Shown here: positions 4,628 through 64,000 of the stretch, one piece after another | Layout of the letters: each line of letters opens with the position of its first letter | How positions within the stretch are numbered: the first letter of the stretch is position 1 | Source of the DNA: Patiria pectinifera | Taxonomy: Eukaryota; Echinodermata; Asteroidea; Valvatida; Asterinidae | Assembly: GCA_029964075.1 (NCBI GenBank) | Contig: CM057147.1 | Span: 19,365,513 to 19,429,512, forward strand | Direction of reading: 5' to 3' | Length of the DNA: 64,000 nt | Translations under genes and position numbers: made by a program | The notes under the pieces: generated by a model | Database searches by the model: none | Told to the model about the DNA's origin: nothing | Seen by the model: the letters and a program-made list of their open reading frames with translations, nothing else

Positions 4628-7588
4628 TCACAGGTAATCCAGAGAAGGGAAGAGATCAGTGAAGGACTCCTCCCAGATATTGTCCCCGAGGTTGGGCGAC
4701 ATGTCCACGCTGTCACTGAACGGCGACACAGGGTTGTCGCTGAACGCCGAGTCGGCACAGCTGCCCGTCTCGCTCTTGGCGTCGCAACTCTTCATGTCAG
4801 AGTCCAGCGAGAGGAGATCGGAGATGTCGCAGTCGAAGACGCCGTTGTCATCGTCGATGGACAGCAGGTTGGGGACCGTGGTGTCTTTCGTGTTCAGTGA
4901 CAGCGAGGCGTCTTTCAGCGAGACCAGCATGTCTTGCAAGGTAGCCTCTGCGTTGCTTCCGAATTCCACGACCGAGGCTGGGGCACTCGCACTGGGAGTG
5001 AAGTCCATCACTGATTCCTCCATGTCCAGGCAGATTACTTCCGGCTCTACAGTCTCTGGCTCTGCGGCGGACAGATGAGCCATTTTCTCCTGTTTGATGT
5101 CCACGGCGGGTGTGGGCACGGGCGGCCTCTTGACGTACTCGTGGTCGAAGCGGATCAGTTCTTTGAGGGATTCCAACTCTTCTGTTGAGGGCCCCACCAC
5201 TGGGTAGGCACCGTCTTGGCCTTGGCCGGCTTCAAAGGAGTCTCGTCCAACATGGCAATGCGCTGGGTCTTGGGCGTCCAGATTTTCAAGCAGTCCCAGT
5301 AGCATGTCAGACTGTGGAAGACAAGTTAGGAAACTGGTCTTAAAACTTGAAGACATTTCATAACTCTTTCCGTTTGCTTTAGGTTTGCCATTTATCTACA
5401 CCTGTATGTACGTGTAGTTTTTTTTTTGTGTTTTTTTTTTTCAAATTTAATGCTTACTTTTTTTTTTTAGAAATCAGTAGCAGAGACAATGAATTTGATT
5501 GCACTAAGATCAATAATGAATTTAAGAACACTGTCAAACTTAACACAGAAAACACATATCAACCATGAACAACAAATACAAAAATTCAGAGATTGATTGA
5601 CCTTTCACCCAATTTGCTTTACAAATGTCATGCATCCCCATTATAGAGTGATTTTTAGGGCAAATCTTGCAAACCATACTACTGTTATTATCAAAAGTAC
5701 ATACCTCAAGCAGAGAAGTGTTGCCAGCCACGCTGAAATCAGTTGGATCTGCGCCTGCTGCGGAGGTGCGTTGAGTGCTGCGGACTCAGGTGATCCAACT
5801 TCATTCTTTATGACGACCACATCTTCTTCTGTCTTGGTCTCCTGTAGTTCGAAGAGGGGAAAAACAGAAGAGACTTGCACATCAATTCTTGAGAACAGAC
5901 CAGTTTACACCACCGTGTCAAATAATTGTTGTGTCAAAATACAAGGATGAGCCTACATATTTGGTTGGGTCAACTGTCACTTTGCAGGAAATGTAATTAT
6001 GGAAAGTCAATCACAAGTCTGTCAATCAGTCAAGTGCCAACGTATTCAACTAAACTGTCACAAAGAACTGTTTTGTTATTGTTCTTACAATTACTTGTTG
6101 TAACCTGTTGTGAAGTTTGAATTGTGGTGATTGGTTTGTGAATGAATCGATCACAAATATATGTCACTTTCCAACACTTCTGTTGTCCTATAGACTATTA
6201 AAAATTGTGGAAAAAATGTTGCAACCTGACGCCACTTCAGCGGTTGTGTTTTTGCAATATGGCTGACCTTCATTGAGATGATATATGAAGAAAAAGTGGC
6301 ATCAGGTTGCAACATTTTTTCCATAATTGTTTTAGTGAGAAGGGGCAGGGCAGAGTGGGGCGGGGTGGAATGGGGCGGGGTGGGGGGGGGGGGGCAAATA
6401 CTGATTACCTTGTGCTATCTTAACTGAAAAACTTCCAACCCGTCATTCTCATACATGTCACTCATTGTTTACATGCCTTGTTTACATGTCACTCGTTGTT
6501 TACTTTTCTTGTTTACATAAACTGCGTACCACTTTGACATCAGCAAGCAGCCCCAGTCTCCGTCGGAGTTCCTGGTTCTCGCTCGTGAGTCTCTCGTTCT
6601 CGTCTTTCAAGGCCTCGTTCTCATTTATGAGTTCTTGGTTGGCCAGCTGCGTGATCTCAAGGGTCTCCTCAATGGTGTCCATGTGGGCCTTCTTGCGGTC
6701 TCGTGCAGTCTGGGCTGCTACTCTGTTCTTCAGTTTCCTGGAAAAAGGCAGTTTTAATTAAATAGGAAAATTAGTAATCATATGTTTACACATTTGACAA
6801 ATACAAATAGGACCTAATTTTTTTTTTGGGGGGGGGGGGGGACGGGGTAATGTAGTAATTGTGCCGCCACTTCCTTTGTTAACTGCAATAAGTAATGGTC
6901 ATTCACTGCAAATATATTGGGATATCATTTATTATGAATTTTGGTTCAGGAAACATCACACAATTTCTTTTGTTTCAACTTTAAAGGGCCTACTTTCCAA
7001 AAATCTGTTGGTTCCCATACACTTTCATGACTTTGTCATGTTTGTCATGTTTGTAACATTAGGCAATAGGCCTATTACAATATGTTTATTACATTTTTCT
7101 AAATATAAAATTATTCATTTAGAGAAAAACATCCCTTGATTAGTTTCAAATAACCTAGGCCCTTGGGACCATTTTAATAAAATTTAATGTAATGTGGGCC
7201 TTCAAATCAAACACAAGTCGATTATTTATTCGAAACATCTGGAAACTCAGCTGTTCAAATGCTTCACTTTCGTTTCGTGATTGTCGTGATTAACGCCCCA
7301 AAAAACAGGGGAAAATATCACAAACAACTCAACAAGTTGAACAATGAACATTTTTGCTGTATAACCACCGTTTTGTTTCAAGAAGGTAAGCCCTATGCCT
7401 ATGTCATCACACCAAAAAAAACCGACTAACCTCCGAAGCATTTTCTCTTCCGGGGACAAGTGCGTAAGCCTTTGCCGCTTGCGCGGCGCAGCGGCCGAGA
7501 CTACTGTGTTGTTCTGATGTTCCATCACTCCGAAACTTCTCTTGATACCCTCTGGTAACTCAGTGAAAATAATTCTCGTAGTAGCCAT
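4628..7588 (-). CDS. XBP1: X-box binding protein 1, spliced form (XBP1s)
   Basis: Coding exons are 7431-7588, 6530-6737, 5705-5841 and 4628-5311. With the 20-nt IRE1 intron at 5761-5780 removed from exon 3, the frame stays open for 388 residues, close to the length of human XBP1s. Residues 36-65 carry RKRQRLTHLSPEEK and the bZIP basic region KLKNRVAAQTARDRKKA. A leucine zipper follows to about residue 115. After the splice the protein reads SAAGADPTDF, then SDMLLGLLENLD and ELIRFDHEY, matching the vertebrate XBP1s activation domain. The acidic C-terminus ends WEESFTDLFPSLDYL. XBP1s is the nuclear transcription factor of the IRE1 branch of the unfolded protein response, driving ER chaperone, ERAD and lipid genes. 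The chosen ATG follows TAAG and gives the only start leading into the bZIP. All conventional introns have GT/AG ends. Confidence 0.95.
5155..7588 (-). CDS. XBP1: XBP1 unspliced isoform (XBP1u), alternative frame
   Basis: Without IRE1 cleavage the same exons encode a 219-residue protein that stops at 5155-5157. It shares the first 147 residues or so with XBP1s. It then reads through the retained 20 nt into AALNAPPQQAQIQL, a hydrophobic stretch (LISAWLATLLCL...) and a tail ending QWWGPQQKSWNPSKN. In vertebrates the hydrophobic region recruits the translating ribosome to the ER membrane. The C-terminal arrest peptide there pauses translation so that the mRNA reaches IRE1. The tail here keeps the W-G-x-x-Q-x-SW-x-P-x-x-N pattern of the vertebrate arrest peptide, so the same delivery mechanism is likely, by inference. 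Confidence 0.8.
5761..5780 (-). promoter_or_regulatory. IRE1 non-conventional intron of XBP1 mRNA (20 nt)
   Basis: The transcript reads GAGUCCG, then CAGCACUCAACGCACCUCCG, then CAGCAGGCGC. Both cleavage sites lie in identical seven-base loops, CCGCAGC, fitting the IRE1 consensus CNG/CAGN. The first loop is closed by UGAGU/ACUCA. The second is closed by GCACCU/AGGCGC with one A-C mismatch. Removing 20 nt changes the frame by two, exactly as the 26-nt vertebrate intron does, and opens the 388-residue XBP1s frame. From memory, vertebrates have 26 nt and fly and worm 23 nt, so 20 nt is short. Confidence 0.9.
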
Positions 7589-17300: not shown

Positions 17301-20300
17301 ACCTGCAGCTTCATCTATAACCTTGAAAGGCAGCGGCGTAACTAGGGTTAAGCTGCTATGGGCTCCGTGCGCCAACGAAAGAGGGCGCCCTTTTATCCAG
17401 CAACGACGTCCAATGGGCGGGACATTTAGCTGGTTGACGCACACCGTTCCTTGTGTGTTGTGTGTGACGCACGTACACCAGGAGATTTGTACTATGTACA
17501 CGCAGTGGTACAGCCACGCGTCGCGGCAAAATCGCAGTCAGGCAAGATGGCGTTGGTTTGTCCCCCCCTCCCAACTGTACTTTCTTTGCCAGTGAGGGGG
17601 TACTTGTGAACTGGGCGGATAGGGGGCACCTGGGGGTGCTCCAATTTTTCAAGGACGGGCTCTGAGGGCAGTGTATATTGTTTGTGTGCAGTTAAAGATT
17701 TCAAATGTGGGGGAGGAACGGACCTCCGCAGGGGTGGGAAGGCAAGCGCCACCCCCCCCCCCCCTAGTTACGCCACTGCTTGTGGGCCTGGGTTCATGAA
17801 TCAATGGCCGCCTCGGTTGCTGCGAACTGTATGAGCTGACAAACTGTAGTTAAGAATTATTTGGGAAAAACAACAACACCACAACGCTGATTACAGTCTG
17901 CACTTTGTTCAATAATTGGCTTTCCAAAATAACACATTCATTTCCTGCAAGGCGCAACTTTTTGATTAGGCCTATTTGATTATAGGCCTATAATTCAAAC
18001 AATGAAACTCCGTTTCCTGCTACTTATCATTCATAGGCCTTAGGCCAACAAAAAAAAGTCTCCGGTTTCTGGTATGGAGCTTGCCCAAAAAGTGGTGCGG
18101 CGACGCGGTTTCTTTTTTTTTTTACCTGATTTTTTTGCTTCAAATGTCGGCTGATGACTGCAAATGGTGCCCGACTAAACTTAGTGCAAATATATGGGAG
18201 TCCAGAGAGGCCACATAAAGCTTATTCTCGATCATTACCCCATCTAAAAACACGTTAGTATTGTGCAGGAGCAGGATTCCAGTCAAACCAGTGAGTTTGG
18301 CGGTTTTGAGACATCATCTTTCATTGAAAAAAAAACTTGTTCATTTTGACGATGCGCATGGCTACAACGACGCGCGCGCATACCAGAAACCAGAGACTTT
18401 TTTTTTTGGCCTTATAATCCTTTTTGTGTGTGTGTGTGAAGACTGTGCGTGATGTATAGTTGTCCCAAGGGAAATCTCACAAGTCGTCTTATATTAACAA
18501 CACATCATTCAATGTGGAATTGGTTTTTTCAAGGTGCTACATAGAGACCTTCCCATGATTGTTTTTTTTTTCCAATTTCGAAAACGCGAGTATAATCAAG
18601 AGACGGCCTTATTAAGCCTACTGATGACGCACGAAATCAGCGCAGGGAAAAAGGCAATTGTTTCTTTAAAAATCATCACTGAAGGAGTTTGCACTGATGT
18701 TGGTGGTCGTTGCACTGACAGCAAAACCGCACAAACCACGCTCCCAAGCTCAGTCAAAAAGCAGTACACCGTGACTTCCAGACAACTTTACAAAACCTGG
18801 AAAGCTATAAGGTATCACAGTCTTTCGCAGAGGCAAACGGAAATCCAAACTGAACACACAATTCCTTGCGATGGCATCAAATCAAAATTTGTCGAGTGGC
18901 GATTTTGAGAACGATACGGGCGATGAAGTTTGGCCTGAGTCCAGCGAGGCGGTCAGCCCTTCACTCGGTGCAATCAATACGATTATCGCCTGCCTCGCAG
19001 TTGTAGGTAACAGTGGTCATCCTCGTTATTCTGCTTCGGCATAACATGTTCAGCTCCTTCACCAATCGTCTCATCCTGCACCAGTCCTGCATTGACTTGA
19101 CTGCCGGGCTGGTGTTTTTCTGCAGTACGGTACTCAAGAGCCCCAACACCGTTGTTGTGTCTCAGGAAGGGAACCTCTCCGACAAACTGACCTGTAGCTT
19201 AATCTTCTCCGATTTCTTCCTGTGGTGCTTGAACGTTACGTCTACGTATAACCTCGTCGCCATCTCACTGAAGCGGTTCGTGGCGACTTGCCACATGGAG
19301 AAATGGCGCAACTCGTGCACGAAAGCCAAACTGAGACGAGGAGCCATGGTAACTTCCTGGGTCGTGGGCTTCGTCTTCTGCTCCCATATGACACTCATGG
19401 TGGAGCCCGTCCAGGGGCGTTGCCAGTTTGTGCCGATGAGCCCTTCTCTGAAGATTTGCATCGGCGTGTTTGTGTTGAGCATAGAGTACGTCGTGCCCGT
19501 TCTCATCATGACGTACTCCTATGTCAAGATACTGACCATGCTGACGAAGAAACTTGCGAATCCAGTGAACCCTCGACAGCACATCATCCGTAGAGCTAAA
19601 AAGAACATTCTCGTTACGATCCTGCTGGTCATTATCGGTTTTGCCATCTGCTGGACACCGGCTGAGTGTTATTACGTGGGTACGCTCCTGCTTGACCTAC
19701 AGCCGAACGAACCCGTGTACACCGCCTTCACCACGCTGCTGGCCTGCAATCTCTTCATCAACCCGATCATTTACAGCTTCATCTACAAACACTTCCGGGC
19801 TCAGCTCAGTGACCTGTTAACACTACGACGATATCGTAGGAATCGCGTCGAAAATATCCCTCTAGGCTGAGGTAGCCTAACTCAAGAAACTTTCAAGAGT
19901 GACTATACAAATTTGACGTTCAATTTGCAGCAACCAAAGTGAAGTGTAATCTGAAAGTTGTTTTTTCAAATTATTTATGGCCCAACAATAGTCTTAATCC
20001 AGGCAGATTTTTTTTGGTGCGTTTGAGGCGCATAGCAACCAGAAATTTTAAAAAAAAGTTGGGTTGTTTTTTTTCAGAGGGAGATTTTTTTTCCGCTAAA
20101 ATAAAAAGGCGAAAAAATTAATTTATTCGGAGAAAGAAAAAGTGCAACTTTATTTTGTGATTTTTATGCTAACGACCCCTTTAATAGCTAAACTGCACCT
20201 GTAAAGCGCGGAGGCAACTGGCGGCCCTCAACACCCCACCGTTGGGATCGACGAACGTCTTGTGCTCCGGACCGAAGCTGAAACCAGGGTGGCGCCGGCA

Positions 20301-23118: not shown

Positions 23119-23418
23119 CAAGGCAGAGGACTTGTCAAAAAGGCTAGTTGCACTGTTGCATCTGTGACCCTGGCCAGACGTGGTTCGGGGTGTTTTTTGA
23201 CACTCATGGTGGAGCCCGTCCAGGGGCGTTGCCAGTTTGTGCCGATGAGCCCTTCTCTGAAGATTTGCATCGGCGTGTTTGTGTTGAGCATTAAGTACGT
23301 CGTGCCCGTTCTCATCATGACGTACTCATATGTCAAGATACTGACAAGGCAGAGGACTTGTCAAAAAGGCTAGTTGCACTGTTGCATCTGTGACCTTGGC
23401 CAGACGTGGTTCGGGGTT
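23119..23418. repeat. Direct repeats of about 75 bp flanking a GPCR fragment
   Basis: A unit starting caaggcagaggacttgtcaa and ending 'cagacgtggttcgggg' followed by T runs occurs at 23119-23197 and again at 23345-23418. The copies differ at about one or two positions (gacccTgg / gaccttgg). The unit is not seen elsewhere in the window. The interval between the copies is exactly the GPCR fragment. Confidence 0.85.
23198..23345 (+). pseudogene. GPCR gene fragment (helix 4 end to helix 5)
   Basis: These 148 bases match 19389-19535 of the nested GPCR with about three differences. One Glu to Lys change (LSIEYVV to LSIKYVV) is among them. The piece encodes [20 protein letters not shown] and helix 5 up to YVKILT. 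It has no start, no other helices, and is bounded by direct repeats. It is a partial duplicate and cannot make a receptor. The very high identity means a recent origin or gene conversion. Confidence 0.9.
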
Positions 23419-29400: not shown

Positions 29401-30183
29401 AAACATTTCACCTGAACGTCAAATTTTTTCCATGTCTCCTACAAAACAACCTTTGATCTGTCATAAACATTAAACATCTTTTCAGTAACAATATTTCAAA
29501 CATCGTTACCTAAATTCTTCTTCTAAGTCGTCAAGGCCTATAGTTAATTCAATTCAAGCCTCTTGTCCGGTCCCCTATTTATCTCGATATGCTAATAGAA
29601 TGTAACAAACCTTTGATTCATTACTCTTTGAACATTCTTTGTCGATGTTCCAGACGGCATAAATCAGACACCATATCAGCTACCTCGCAAGTCAGTTTTC
29701 GATTGATAAATCAGTGAAATCAATATTTCAGCGAGGGGAAATCAACTCCAGCAGTTTCCAATTTGTTTTCCAAAAACATTTTAAGGAGTAACCAAATCTG
29801 TTATGCAAAATGCAAGGTCCCCTCTCCCAGAAGCATTGCGTGTTAGGGTGAGTGGCATTGGGATACCTTTTTTTCAATTGAAACGAAAGCATCACTGTGT
29901 TTTCACTGCAGGACACATCTGAATTGGTGTTACACCCAGCGACCAATGAGAGAACAGTAAGACCACCACTGTGAGGTACGTCTACCCAATTCCCGCCCCC
30001 ATCTGTGTTCCCACGACCGTCGTGAATCGGGCAGCTGCTTCGCTGTCTAAATTCCCAGGACTCGAGAGTCTTCCAGGACTTAATCGAGCCCGTCGGACCA
30101 AAATTTGGGATTACTCACCAACTTGGAATTACATCTCATCCAGAGAAAAAGTTCCTAGCTGTATTTCACCGAAGGAGGACAGG

Positions 30184-33100
30184 ATGATCCCCCTTCTAGT
30201 GTTTTGTTTGGCTTGGAGCCATCTTTGGTCGCCCGTGAGAGCGTCTTGCCGTGACGGGGGTCAGTTCGGCGGAGCTCTGTGCTGCCAGGGGAAGGATCTT
30301 AATTGTGTGGCGGAGGGTTACAGGGTCAACTCGCCTTACTACCACGAGACCTGCTTCTGCGACAAGGCGTGTGTGGATAGCAGGGACTGCTGCTCTGATT
30401 ACGAAGCTGCCTGTCCAGGTAAGGACACTTTGGGGTGATGGGAGTGGTGCGGTGGTGGTGGTAAGGGGGATGCTGAGATGTGGGTGGGGTGGTGGTGATA
30501 GATGGGTGATTGGTGAGAAGTGTGAGGATTGTGGCGGTGGTGAAGAAGGAGGGTATAATGAAGGTGAATATGGTAGTGGTGACAATTGTAATGATGGTGA
30601 CAATGGTGATAACGGTGGTGATGACTGGGTCGATGATGGTGATCATTGTGAAGAAGATGTAGGTGATGAAAGTGGAAATGGTGACAATTATGATTGTGGT
30701 TACTGTGGTAAAGACTGAATAACGATCATCATTATAAAAAGAGGGTTATAAAGAGGATAATGCCTGAATAATGGTGATGGGGGTAAGGATGGTGATGATG
30801 ATTCATTCATTCATTCATTCATAATTGTTCATTCATTCATTCGGATTGTGATGCTGTAACCGATACTGTTGTTGCTGCTTATGATGCTGATGATAATGTC
30901 GATGATGATGGTGTGAAGAAGTTGACGATGGTGTTGAAGACAGTGCGTATAGGTTGATATTGCTACTGCTCATGGTGGTAAAGTATGAGGCAAAAGATGC
31001 ATGGTGCGTATAGCGAGGATGGTTCAAATTGACAATGATTGTGCTGATATTAATGATGGTGAATTAATGTGACGATAGATCAGCTCACGATGACAACCAC
31101 TAACGTGGAGTGTTTAGTATGATACTGTAAAGACGCAACAAGGTAAATGGTGCATTGTGATGACGAGTGCGAATGTGTTCACAGTTTTGACTATTTGAGG
31201 TGGGGATGATCGTAATGAAAACACGACAATTCCCATCGATCGATTACGATCACCAAAATTACCACAATAATCATATTTTTTTCCCACCTCAAGCTGCAAT
31301 TATAAAAATCAGTGACTCAGATTGCGGCACATCTGCACGAGTTCCTTTTTCATATTTTCCCGCAAGACATAAATACATTGCTGGGAATTTCCAGTCGAGT
31401 GTGATGTTTATACCAAGACCTGGGAGCCACTTCGAACGTTGAAAACTACATTCCATTTGTCGCATTTTATTTAGGCCCAACTATTTCCGTCGTGTCAACT
31501 TATAGGTGTAATTTACAGGATGATTCTCAGTGTTGACGGAGTAAACCACTGGAATTCTTTAACTGTCTCAAGCTTTCATTGACAAGCAATAGAAAAAAAC
31601 CTGGCTGGTGGATATGCCATTACACATTAATATCTTTTGGCACAGATCGATGTCCTTATAGACGGTACAATTTAGTTGAATTCTAAAACGAAGTTTAAAT
31701 TCTCAATTGAAATCTCGATTCATGTATTGCATTTTTTAGGCCTATAACTTGTTTCCCATTTTAATAGAATTCTGGCCTCCATACAACTTTCAAACCGGCT
31801 CAATTTACGAAAATGTCAATCCTTCATATACCAAGAAGGATATTCTTATCCTTAAAAGTGTGCCATGCAGAGCTGTATGTGTGGTCTTGTTTTGCTGTTG
31901 AGCGTGTGGTTGTGTGTTTAACAAAACAAAACGTGACGATTTTGAATTCCACCGTGACATTTCATTTGGCCACTGACCCAAATATTCGACCTAAAAATAT
32001 CTCCTAAAATAAACTGCTTCAAGTATCAAAAACTACGAGGCCGACACATCTCGCCATATGGACAACATCTCGCAACTCGGTATTAAAAATTCTTTCAATG
32101 ATGAAATACTGTTGCCATACCTAGATGTAGAACAAAAGATATTCCAATAGCTTTTTTCCCCACGCGCTGCATCTCTTTGGAATTCCTTGCCTGGTGCTTG
32201 TTTCCCTCCAACCTGTGATCTGTCCTGGTTCAAGAGGACTGCTAAATCCTACCTTTGGTATTTCTGATTACTTACACTTCTGTTTATTTCTCCTGTAGCC
32301 ATGTACCTTGAGTGCATGGCTTTTAGCGTTGTTCAGGGAAAAAATGCATTAAAAAAATAGATTATTCACTCCGTACACCAATTAATTAAAATAAACATCA
32401 CTTGATCAATATAGCTCAAGACGATATGCTTTCATTACAAATTGTTGTATTAATTGGGGGACCTTTAGAGGTAATTAATTTTTGACTCTTTAGCGGAAAA
32501 TGACATAGTGTGGCTCGATTAGTGATGTACAAAACAGGGCATAATGTGGTGACTTCTAAGGAAATTCTGGCGCTCCTTGAGATTTTTTTTTCTATTTGCG
32601 AAATTTCACAATATTGTCTCCTTTAAAACAAGTCAACACATTAAAACAAACAAACAAACAAACAAACAAACACCCCAACAAACAAACAGACAACCCATCA
32701 ATGTAGGACAGTGAAATGTGACATTGAGCACACCATGGTGCCCGTCACGACGACTCTCTCAAAAAATCTCCTGGATTTGAAATCAAAAAACAAATTGTCA
32801 ACAAAATGTCCTCGGGCGCCCTAGGCTATTAAAAAAAATTAGACGAATGAAAGAAGTTTGTCAAGTTTTGCCTGTTAACAGTTTGCTAACAACATCCCCT
32901 GTGGACAGACAATACCGAACACATTTTTAAAAATCACAGGGGGTGGCACGGTCAGATAAATACCGGGGCTCACAGGGCGTGGGGTGAAAGCACTTTCACC
33001 TTGGGGCAGCTGTTGAGAATCCAGGGCATTGGCACGCGTGGAAACAGCACGGTACCTTTCTGAGCATCAGGGGCATATTTCCCACAACTGTTGCATTTCA

Positions 33101-35941
33101 AACTTAAAGCAAACGATTTTTCTATCATAGGTTACATTTTGGCAACATAGTACTCGAGACCACGACAAGTCGTCACAAATTAACGCACAGTGAAGTCAAT
33201 CACATGTCATCCATCATGCACGCCCAATTCAAGTCACAAGCTATGTCTCAACTGACAAAGACCTCTTTTTTTTGTTCCTCCCATGTTTTGACCGAACCCG
33301 TGATGGACTTTTGATGGACTTGATTACGCACTTTTTCTTTAAACAGTTAACTGCTTATTGTCCGAATCACGCTGAAATTCAATCATCTCAGACATATCAT
33401 AACAACATTTTGGGGGGGGGGGTGGCGAATTTTGATATTAATATCTTCTCTTGCGAAGGAAAATGTCTAACTACTCGCTAATATCTCTGAATGTACTACA
33501 TTTACTACCTAAAAATACATCTCGAGTTCCTAAAAAATGTTCACGAACAAAGTTTGAGGTTTTTTGGAGGGAGGGTAATAAAACGGCCCAACCTAAGTCA
33601 ATCCTGTTTACACTTCCATCTATAATTCATTCAACAATGATCAACTTGTCCAAATTTTTTACGATAGGCTTATTTTGTCAGTCATCTTTATTCTTTAATT
33701 TTCACTTCATCATCTTCCTCCAACCCTCTGGCTCTTAAGTACGAGTCTCACGAACACAAACACACTTTGATTTTTTTCCGAGCACACAATTTTTGTTGCT
33801 ACCTAAAAGTCCTGCCATTATAATGGGTGTCCTTAAAGTGTCTACTGCCTACTCAATCTTAACTATTTCCATGATTTTTCTACCGCATCTTTTCTTTTTA
33901 GCCGTGGACTGTGAGGTCTCCTCATGGAGCTACTGGAGCGGATGCAGCGTACTGTGCGGTATCGGCGTCAGCGAACGAAGACGCTACAAGATCAAGGACC
34001 CCGAAAATGCAGGAGATAAGTGTCCCCCTTTCCGCCAAATGAGGGCGTGCTTCGCAAGCTTCTGTGAAACCAATGAGATCCCTGCTAACGGTAAATAAGG
34101 CAAAAACTTTTTCCCTAAGTACGAAACATGTTGACGACGGAAAATTCCAAAAATGCTCTGCCATGACTTGACATACAATACTGCACAAAATGACTGCACC
34201 CAAAACAACTTACATTCAAAGTACATTGGAAATACCGTTTCTAAATCTAATAGGTTTAACACACCCAACTACATGTAAACTCCATCAATGCACCAAATGT
34301 TAAATTAAAAAATATCCGACTAAATTTTTTATTTGACTCTCACAATTTGGTAATCTTTCCCAGGTATTGCACTAGTCCTTCCATACTCCTACAATGCAAG
34401 AAGGAACGATCCGGATTTGAATCGCATGAAGAATTTCCTCATTAGTTTGGGCCAGTACAAACCGTAAGTTTTTGATTCAGAAAACAAGCACGAATGTTAG
34501 TGGTATGTAGCAAATGATATGATGCAAATTTATTTACTTTATCTACGGATATAAACACGAGTTTTAAAATAGTGTTAAGAGATATACCGGGGTTAGAATT
34601 TCCGGTCATTTATGTAGGCTGTAACAGTAACACGTGCAAATTTAGGAGCACGATGAATTGTTTATGAAATTCAGGTACTGGTTCGTATGACTTGTGTACT
34701 GACGAAACGACACGGGTCTACATCTAACGATAGTGCCTATAGTGGCATTCTACAAAGATGTGCTAGAAATGGGGGAGTAAATTCTTCTTACAAACGTTTT
34801 TACAAACGTTTCGCAGATACATTATTAATAATGACATGTACTTACTATTTATTGTCTTGGTTTTCCACATTCCATAGCTTTGACAGTTACTGTGTGTATT
34901 TCAAGGTGACTGGGAGGAACAAAAGCTGTCGATCCAATCGAGATAGCGTGTGGGCCAACATCATCAAAAAAGGTATTCCGAAAAGTGAATGACCCCCAAA
35001 AGTGAACATTCCCTGCGCTGTTTTGAGCGTTTGTTTAGCTCGAACTGATAATTGAAGTCCAAACGTCATGCCATATTTCTGCCAGATGGCAAAAAGAATG
35101 TGACTGGTGGTTTCCAAGGTGAAAATGTTGCAAGAATGCCATGCCAACCATTCCAGCCCTGGCCACATGTACCCGGAGTGACCTTTTCCGAGTTTCCCGC
35201 CCAACGTGTTGACGGTGTCTAGAAGGAATTTTGGAATTTTCAAAACTATTCTTGATTGAAGAAAACTACAAGAGAAGTGAACACTTTGGGGTCACCGTCA
35301 ATTTTAATGCACAAATTATTGATGTCGAATGTGGATATTCAATTCGTGAGGTTTTTTGGTAAATACTTATTACGCGATCTCCTTCAGGGTACCGTTGATT
35401 TGGACATGTTCTTGGTCGTCTGCTCGCTGCTCATAAACATGGCTCGTTCAAATTTCCATTCACTGAGTATTTGCAAAGGGTGTTTAATTAGTTCTCTGAT
35501 CCTTTTTCTTAATATTGATGAAGAAATTAAGAAATGGACCACAGGTCTGATGTCTACCAAGGTTGCTTGCTACTTTTCAGGGAAAAGTTGAGGAAAAATT
35601 TTAAAATGTAGGCTACTTTGTTGCGGTCATTTTTCAAAATGGGCACGCAAAACATAAGCAAGTCTCCATCCTGGTGCTAGTTACGTTATTCATGACTTTG
35701 TTTCTTAGAATTCCATGTTATTTCAAATTTTTGGTGTCGTTATTTATCAGGTACATTAGTCTGCGTGGAATGTACCCAACCTGCCTTCGACAACGACGGC
35801 CGGTGTCGCGGGGAAGGCACCGAGGGGAAACGGACGCGCTGGTCGGCGGTGGATCTGCCCAAGTGCCGGGGCCGCTGGGTCCAGACATCGATACAGGAAA
35901 AATGCAAGTGCAATACGGGCTCCGATTTAATATTTATTTGA
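30184..35941 (+). CDS. SBSPON: Somatomedin B and thrombospondin type 1 protein (RPE-spondin-like)
   Basis: Five exons: 30184-30418, 33902-34090, 34364-34463, 34878-34972 and 35751-35941. Phases close exactly, giving 269 residues against 264 in human SBSPON. Residues 1-21 are a signal peptide (IPLLVFCLAWSHLW). Residues 22-78 form a cysteine-rich somatomedin B domain (CFCDKACVDSRDCCSDYEAAC). Residues 81-135 form a thrombospondin type 1 repeat with WSYWSGC. The C-terminal part has SYCVYFKVTG, then VCVECTQPAF and RWVQTSIQEKCKC, ending LIFI like the vertebrate protein. The secreted product is presumably an extracellular-matrix component; its role in invertebrates is not known to me. The small fourth exon is placed because it alone restores frame and matches the family's YCMEF segment. 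The frame is open upstream but the first ATG is the one preceding the signal peptide. Confidence 0.93.
30801..30842. repeat. (ATTC)n microsatellite
   Basis: Two runs of ATTC units, separated by 'ataattgtt', lie in SBSPON intron 1, beside triplet-rich DNA. Confidence 0.9.
32644..32690. repeat. (AAAC)n microsatellite
   Basis: About seven uninterrupted AAAC units, then 'acccc', then further AAAC units, in SBSPON intron 1. Confidence 0.9.
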
Positions 35942-40593: not shown

Positions 40594-63888
<23,295 letters not shown>

Positions 63889-64000
63889 CTGAAGGACAGA
63901 ATGAAATAGTAGAATAGTTTTTTTTCCTGCAAAGGCTTCTGTATAACTATCTCAATAGGATATCAATCACTTGGTGCTAACCAAGCTTCTTAAAAGGCTT

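What the first reader, a model, noticed from the sequence alone, without database searches (positions are those of the whole stretch)
5761..5780. XBP1 IRE1 intron is 20 nt, the shortest form I know, yet keeps the frame switch
Seen: two identical CCGCAGC loops bracket 20 nt. Removal joins a bZIP frame to a 227-codon activation domain, and exon phases close exactly (137-20=117). Known: vertebrate XBP1 introns are 26 nt and fly and worm ones 23 nt; all are 2 modulo 3. A step of 3 from 26 to 23 to 20 suggests the inter-loop spacer can shrink only by whole codons. This constrains models of how an IRE1 dimer reads both hairpins. The second stem also has an A-C mismatch, so it may tolerate a weaker fold.
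Basis: partly seen in the sequence, partly recalled or inferred. Interest (0 to 1): 0.85.

Follow-up and report, generated by a model that had tools for sequence, protein, structure and literature searches.

The report
Ordinary XBP1 splice switch, 20-nt intron
An animal's copy of the well-known XBP1 stress-response gene carries the usual tiny intron that the enzyme IRE1 is expected to cut out; at 20 bases it is not the shortest on record, so it is a good example of a known switch and not a new one.

Summary
On the minus strand, 5761-5780 is a 20-nt IRE1-type intron in coding exon 3 of an XBP1 gene (7588-4628). Removing it joins a bZIP frame to a 246-codon tail, 227 codons of it in exon 4. The RNA folds as the known three-way junction with two 7-nt CCGCAGC loops and matches Rfam RF04247 at E 5.3e-5, but at 38.1 bits, under the curated 41.

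The interpretation mostly fails. Shorter or equal introns are published: 17 nt in XBP1 of Lepidoptera and Coleoptera (by alignment), 19 nt in Candida albicans HAC1, 20 nt in Aspergillus niger hacA. The three-base ladder needs no IRE1 geometry: XBP1s is blind to intron length, while XBP1u is read through the intron into a C-terminus resembling the human arrest peptide, so only whole-codon changes keep it. HAC1 introns of 19 and 252 nt are not 2 modulo 3.

A new member of a known kind; low interest. Splicing was not observed, the animal was not identified, and no relatives were obtained.

The parts
5761..5780 (-). IRE1-type intron, 20 nt
   Evidence: between the two CCG^CAG cleavage positions; removal switches frame to a 246-codon tail
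5777..5783 (-). loop 1, CCGCAGC (5' cleavage loop)
5757..5763 (-). loop 2, CCGCAGC (3' cleavage loop)
5772..5788 (-). hairpin 1: 5-bp stem around loop 1
   Evidence: closing-pair probability 0.85
5751..5769 (-). hairpin 2: 5 bp with one A-C mismatch around loop 2
   Evidence: closing-pair probability 0.83
5741..5800 (-). three-way junction closed by an uninterrupted 9-bp outer stem (5800-5792 with 5749-5741)
   Evidence: same architecture as the Rfam RF04247 consensus (match 5734-5803)
7431..7588 (-). XBP1 coding exon 1 (from ATG)
   Evidence: donor GTTAGT
6530..6737 (-). XBP1 coding exon 2 (most of the bZIP)
   Evidence: acceptor TTTTTCCAG, donor GTACGC; Pfam bZIP_1 E 1.4e-8
5705..5841 (-). 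XBP1 exon 3, 137 nt, holding the IRE1 intron; folds almost whole as one long hairpin
   Evidence: -46.5 kcal/mol, z -2.66, 1 of 200 shuffles as stable; borders
4628..5311 (-). XBP1 exon 4 coding part: 227 codons of the XBP1s tail plus stop
   Evidence: acceptor CTTCCACAG
5155..5229 (-). XBP1u (unspliced frame) last 24 codons, resembling the human arrest peptide, plus stop
   Evidence: best of 1,769 C-termini in the window against the human peptide; human peptide checked against PDB 6r5q; coordinates worked out by hand
5705..5742 (-). exon-3 part of an HR2-like hydrophobic stretch of XBP1u (continues at 5311-5305)
   Evidence: most hydrophobic 15-residue stretch of XBP1u, residues 156-170, mean 1.97 Kyte-Doolittle; coordinates worked out by hand

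Best explanation
This is the ordinary IRE1 splice switch of an animal XBP1 gene. Shown from sequence: the unspliced mRNA carries two 7-nt CCGCAGC loops in hairpins on a shared closing stem, and excision of the 20 nt between the two cut positions joins the bZIP to a 246-codon tail. Inferred from the known pathway: under ER stress IRE1 cuts both loops after the G, the exon ends stay held by the outer stem (which in the predicted fold gains a 4-bp CCUG/CAGG pairing once the intron is gone), an RNA ligase (RtcB in animals, recalled) joins them, and XBP1s activates ER genes. Without stress XBP1u is made, and its hydrophobic stretch and arrest-like C-terminus would bring the mRNA to the ER. Also inferred: intron length in this gene changes by whole codons because XBP1u must be read in frame through it; whether 20 nt arose by loss or gain was not tested.
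For: Two loops, exon phases and both proteins. Rfam RF04247 match over the full model, E 5.3e-5 in 3.3 kb. The minimum-energy fold is the twin-hairpin three-way junction, and both loop-closing pairs keep probability 0.85 and 0.83 in mRNA contexts of 100, 140, 220 and 320 nt. Twin-hairpin arrangement: 0.02 per simulated window. bZIP domain. XBP1u tail: C-terminus scores 36 against the human arrest peptide where the next best of 1,769 window C-termini scores 20 (last 13 residues 44 against 20); 8 of 24 residues identical, 7 of the last 13, among them W249, G250, Q253, S255, W256, P258 and N261 (human numbering). Cofold of the cleaved exons shows the outer stem plus the 4-bp pairing, the kind of zipper-like arrangement that PMC6037481 describes for XBP1 (passages).
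Against: The Rfam score, 38.1, is below the curated cut-off 41. The 70-nt core is not unusually stable: z -1.42, 22 of 200 shuffles as good. A PDB search with whole XBP1u or with its last 35 residues does not find the XBP1 arrest-peptide chains. L246, whose change to Ala abolished pausing in human XBP1u (PMC4138184), is T here in the ungapped alignment, and of the eight optimal positions of PMC6624018 only four are kept (W249, G250, W256, P258), so pausing here is open. No RNA data, IRE1 gene not looked for outside the window, no relative's XBP1 obtained, animal unidentified.
Confidence: 0.94

Rival explanations
1. The steps of three (26, 23, 20) reflect how an IRE1 dimer reads the two hairpins, so the spacer can only shrink by set amounts.
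For: The animal lengths that I read or recall, 17, 20, 23 and 26, are all 2 modulo 3 (17 and 23 in insects; 26 in mammals: abstracts; fly and worm 23 recalled).
Against: The unspliced frame alone demands it: XBP1u runs through the intron into an arrest-like tail. HAC1 introns of 19, 252 and 626 nt, with all three remainders, are spliced.
Confidence: 0.04
2. Assembly error: bases are missing between the hairpins and the true intron is 23 or 26 nt.
For: No reads could be checked; 20 nt is shorter than the 23-26 nt of the best-studied animals.
Against: The length keeps both frames open, both hairpins fold, there is no homopolymer in the stretch, and an error would have to be a whole number of codons.
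Confidence: 0.03
3. Decayed or processed XBP1 copy that no longer switches.
For: None found.
Against: Three conventional introns with GT-AG sites, both reading frames open over their full length, XBP1u tail resembling the human one.
Confidence: 0.02

Closest known systems
Vertebrate XBP1 (26-nt intron)
   Same: bZIP gene, two 7-nt loops cut in CNG^CNG, frame switch, XBP1u C-terminus resembling the human arrest peptide
   Different: 20 nt here; 4 nt less between the hairpins and one position less in each stem (human side recalled); only 4 of 8 optimal arrest-peptide positions kept
Insect XBP1 (Diaphorina citri 23 nt confirmed; Lepidoptera and Coleoptera 17 nt by alignment; PMC13027231)
   Same: CNG^CNG loops in two stem-loops; length 2 modulo 3
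   Different: lengths 23 and 17; 17 is shorter than the case here
Fungal HAC1/hacA (A. niger 20 nt, PMC3472299; C. albicans 19 nt, PMC6222058; N. crassa 23 nt, PMC4488935)
   Same: short IRE1 intron between two hairpins; A. niger has the same 20-nt length
   Different: different gene context; 19 nt breaks the 2-modulo-3 rule

Membership tests
Hac1/Xbp1 non-canonical intron (Rfam RF04247) | covariance-model match at the curated score | tested here: inconclusive
   match over positions 1-72 of 72, E 5.3e-5, but 38.1 bits against cut-off 41
Hac1/Xbp1 non-canonical intron (Rfam RF04247) | two 7-nt CNGCNGN loops in hairpins on a common closing stem | tested here: met
Hac1/Xbp1 non-canonical intron (Rfam RF04247) | excision changes the reading frame to a long C-terminal tail | tested here: met
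   219 aa unspliced, 388 aa spliced; activation by the tail not testable
Hac1/Xbp1 non-canonical intron (Rfam RF04247) | stress-dependent removal by IRE1 and ligation | not testable with these tools
   needs RNA from the animal
XBP1 transcription factors | bZIP domain upstream of the intron | tested here: met
   bZIP_1 1.4e-8, residues 48-107; the 3 Pfam hits are general bZIP models, none specific to XBP1
XBP1 transcription factors | XBP1u hydrophobic region after the intron (HR2) | tested here: met
   hydropathy only, residues 156-170; not aligned with other HR2 sequences
XBP1 transcription factors | XBP1u C-terminus resembling the arrest peptide | tested here: met
   first of 1,769 window C-termini; but PDB searches did not recover the human chain
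XBP1 transcription factors | arrest-peptide residues needed or optimal in human (L246; Y241, P244, W249-H252, W256, P258) | tested here: not met
   L246 replaced by T in the ungapped alignment; 4 of the 8 optimal positions kept. This bears on pausing strength, not on XBP1 identity
XBP1 transcription factors | orthology by tree with other animals' XBP1 | not tested
   no animal XBP1 sequences obtained; genome search not answered

The most novel reading that the evidence does not exclude
First animal XBP1 with a 20-nt intron, filling the ladder 17-20-23-26, in which length is set by the need to read XBP1u through the intron, while exon 3 as a whole is shaped into one long exon-holding hairpin (z -2.66, 1 of 200 shuffles as stable; z -2.1, 18 of 1,000 synonymous recodings of the unspliced frame as stable) that keeps the cut exons together despite a short, mismatched second stem.
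Probability: 0.3. Interest if true: 0.3.

Novelty: new member of a known kind. Interest (0 to 1): 0.17.

Why it matters
It adds an intermediate length to the animal XBP1 series and suggests a simple cause for the three-base ladder: XBP1s is blind to intron length, XBP1u is not. That predicts that animals which lost the XBP1u tail should be free to have introns of any length. Otherwise it is a textbook gene.

Tried and rejected
Searched viral contigs once for the twin-loop pattern to find relatives: 0 matches. PDB search with whole XBP1u gave 29 sequences up to E 10, the best being bZIPs (E 0.0014 and up), none XBP1; with its last 35 residues, one, an endoglucanase at E 0.14. So the arrest-peptide resemblance rests on the comparison anchored at the stop codon, with the window's own C-termini as control, not on a database hit. 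Rejected as an argument: stability of the 70-nt core (z -1.42). Pfam on 10 neighbouring frames: 8 matched, 2 did not. No tRNA genes.

Papers. Hooks and Griffiths-Jones 2011 (the survey of Hac1/Xbp1 introns) and Peschek 2015 (RNA zipper) are not held; I know them only through other papers. In the listings I did not see a 20-nt XBP1 intron reported for an animal, but nearly all papers were seen only as list entries, so this is weak. Passages were seen of PMC4891664, PMC4488935, PMC6222058, PMC3634759, PMC4138184, PMC6624018 (also its section 11), PMC3472299, PMC13027231 and PMC6037481; none was read whole.

Full report
What is there. The window looks like animal DNA: a rhodopsin-type receptor, clathrin heavy chain exons, a thrombospondin type 1 domain and a somatomedin-B-like domain just under its cut-off (8 of 10 frames tested matched Pfam). 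The minus strand of 7588-4628 holds an XBP1 gene with four coding exons, 7588-7431, 6737-6530, 5841-5705 and 5311-4628; the three conventional introns have GT-AG borders. The bZIP domain is recognised by Pfam (bZIP_1, E 1.4e-8). The end of exon 2 could also be three bases earlier (read by eye); this would not alter the frame.

The observation. Two CCGCAGC loops at 5783-5777 and 5763-5757 bracket 20 nt, 5780-5761. With the 20 nt kept the gene reads as a 219-aa XBP1u; with them removed, as a 388-aa XBP1s whose last 246 codons are specific to the spliced form, 227 of them in exon 4. The heptamer by itself is not remarkable (5 matches, 2.44 expected). The arrangement is: two loops of the form CNGCNGN, each closed by at least five of six pairs and 14-60 nt apart, occur once in the real window and 0.02 times per simulated window (200 first-order Markov windows; single hairpins 17 real, 8.16 simulated). 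These criteria were set after seeing the site.

Structure. The best fold of 5803-5734 is a three-way junction: a 9-bp outer stem, a 5-bp hairpin, and a second hairpin of 5 bp broken by one A-C mismatch, each with its 7-nt loop open. The loop-closing pairs have probabilities 0.85 and 0.83 in all four mRNA contexts tried (40 to 150 nt on either side). Rfam's model of the Hac1/Xbp1 intron matches over its full length with E 5.3e-5, but scores 38.1 bits, under the curated 41. The core is not unusually stable for its composition (z -1.42, 22 of 200 shuffles as good). Exon 3 as a whole folds into one long hairpin; 1 of 200 shuffles was as stable (z -2.66), and 18 of 1,000 synonymous recodings of the unspliced frame (z -2.1; these recodings did not preserve the spliced frame). 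When the intron is left out, the two exon ends stay paired by the outer stem and gain a 4-bp CCUG/CAGG helix. That is the kind of zipper-like arrangement attributed to XBP1 by Peschek and colleagues, seen here only through PMC6037481 (passages).

The unspliced protein. Its most hydrophobic stretch is residues 156-170, just after the intron; this is a hydropathy result, not an alignment with known HR2 sequences. Its C-terminus was compared, anchored at the stop codon and without gaps, with the human XBP1u arrest peptide (recalled, checked against PDB 6r5q). It scores 36, while the next of 1,769 C-termini of open frames in the window scores 20; over the last 13 residues 44 against 20, with 7 of 13 identical, including both tryptophans of the turn and S255. 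Against this: PDB searches with the whole protein or the tail do not find the human chain; of the eight positions called optimal in PMC6624018 (section 11) four are kept; and L246, needed in human (PMC4138184), is not matched. One of the differences here, P at 251, is among the natural variants that paper names, with modestly weaker arrest. So the tail looks homologous, and its pausing strength is open. Conservation of these regions between mammals and Drosophila is already published (PMC4138184).

Is 20 nt the shortest? No. [quoted passage not shown] PMC6222058 gives 19 nt for Candida albicans HAC1 and 19-22 nt for it and two relatives. A. [quoted passage not shown] In the listings of my ten literature searches I did not see a 20-nt XBP1 intron reported for an animal, but several listings were cut, two of them heavily, and the main survey of such introns is not held, so this is weak.

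Why steps of three. The spliced reading frame does not contain the intron and is indifferent to its length. The unspliced frame contains it and continues for 70 codons after it (worked out) through the hydrophobic stretch to the arrest-like tail. A length change that is not a multiple of three would cut XBP1u off from that tail. So lengths of 17, 20, 23 and 26 follow from coding alone, and say nothing about the distance between active sites in an IRE1 dimer. [quoted passage not shown] This explanation is an inference; its tests are in the next steps.

Verdict. A well-preserved XBP1 switch with a length between the 17 and 23 nt published for insects. Splicing was not observed, the animal was not identified and no relatives were obtained (genome search did not complete). 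A new member of a known kind.

Noticed in passing
6199-6332: Long inverted repeat in conventional intron 2 of XBP1 (match to miRNA family MIR7533 at 28.3 bits, far below its cut-off of 230; a 13-nt motif of its arms occurs nowhere else in the window); perhaps a small inverted-repeat transposon.
   Followed up: partly
19389-19547 and 23198-23356: A 159-nt piece of the rhodopsin-type receptor frame (19007-19870) recurs at 96% identity 3.8 kb downstream, probably a partial duplication.
   Followed up: no
45336-63951, minus strand: Clathrin heavy chain exons: 5 of the 7 minus-strand frames tested matched clathrin models; the frames at 41528-41851 and 59993-60277 had no Pfam match.
   Followed up: partly
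18041-18408 and 50140-50506: Inverted repeat arms of about 370 nt, reported as two pieces 96% and 93% complementary, some 32 kb apart: probably two copies of a dispersed repeat.
   Followed up: no
41911-42193: Tandem array with a 23-24-nt unit.
   Followed up: no
54251-54891: Four copies of a 177-nt direct repeat; the other three are 74-94% identical to the reference copy.
   Followed up: no
29950-30438 and 33739-34098, plus strand: Somatomedin-B-like domain (21.6 bits, cut-off 23.1) followed by a thrombospondin type 1 domain, perhaps parts of one gene.
   Followed up: no
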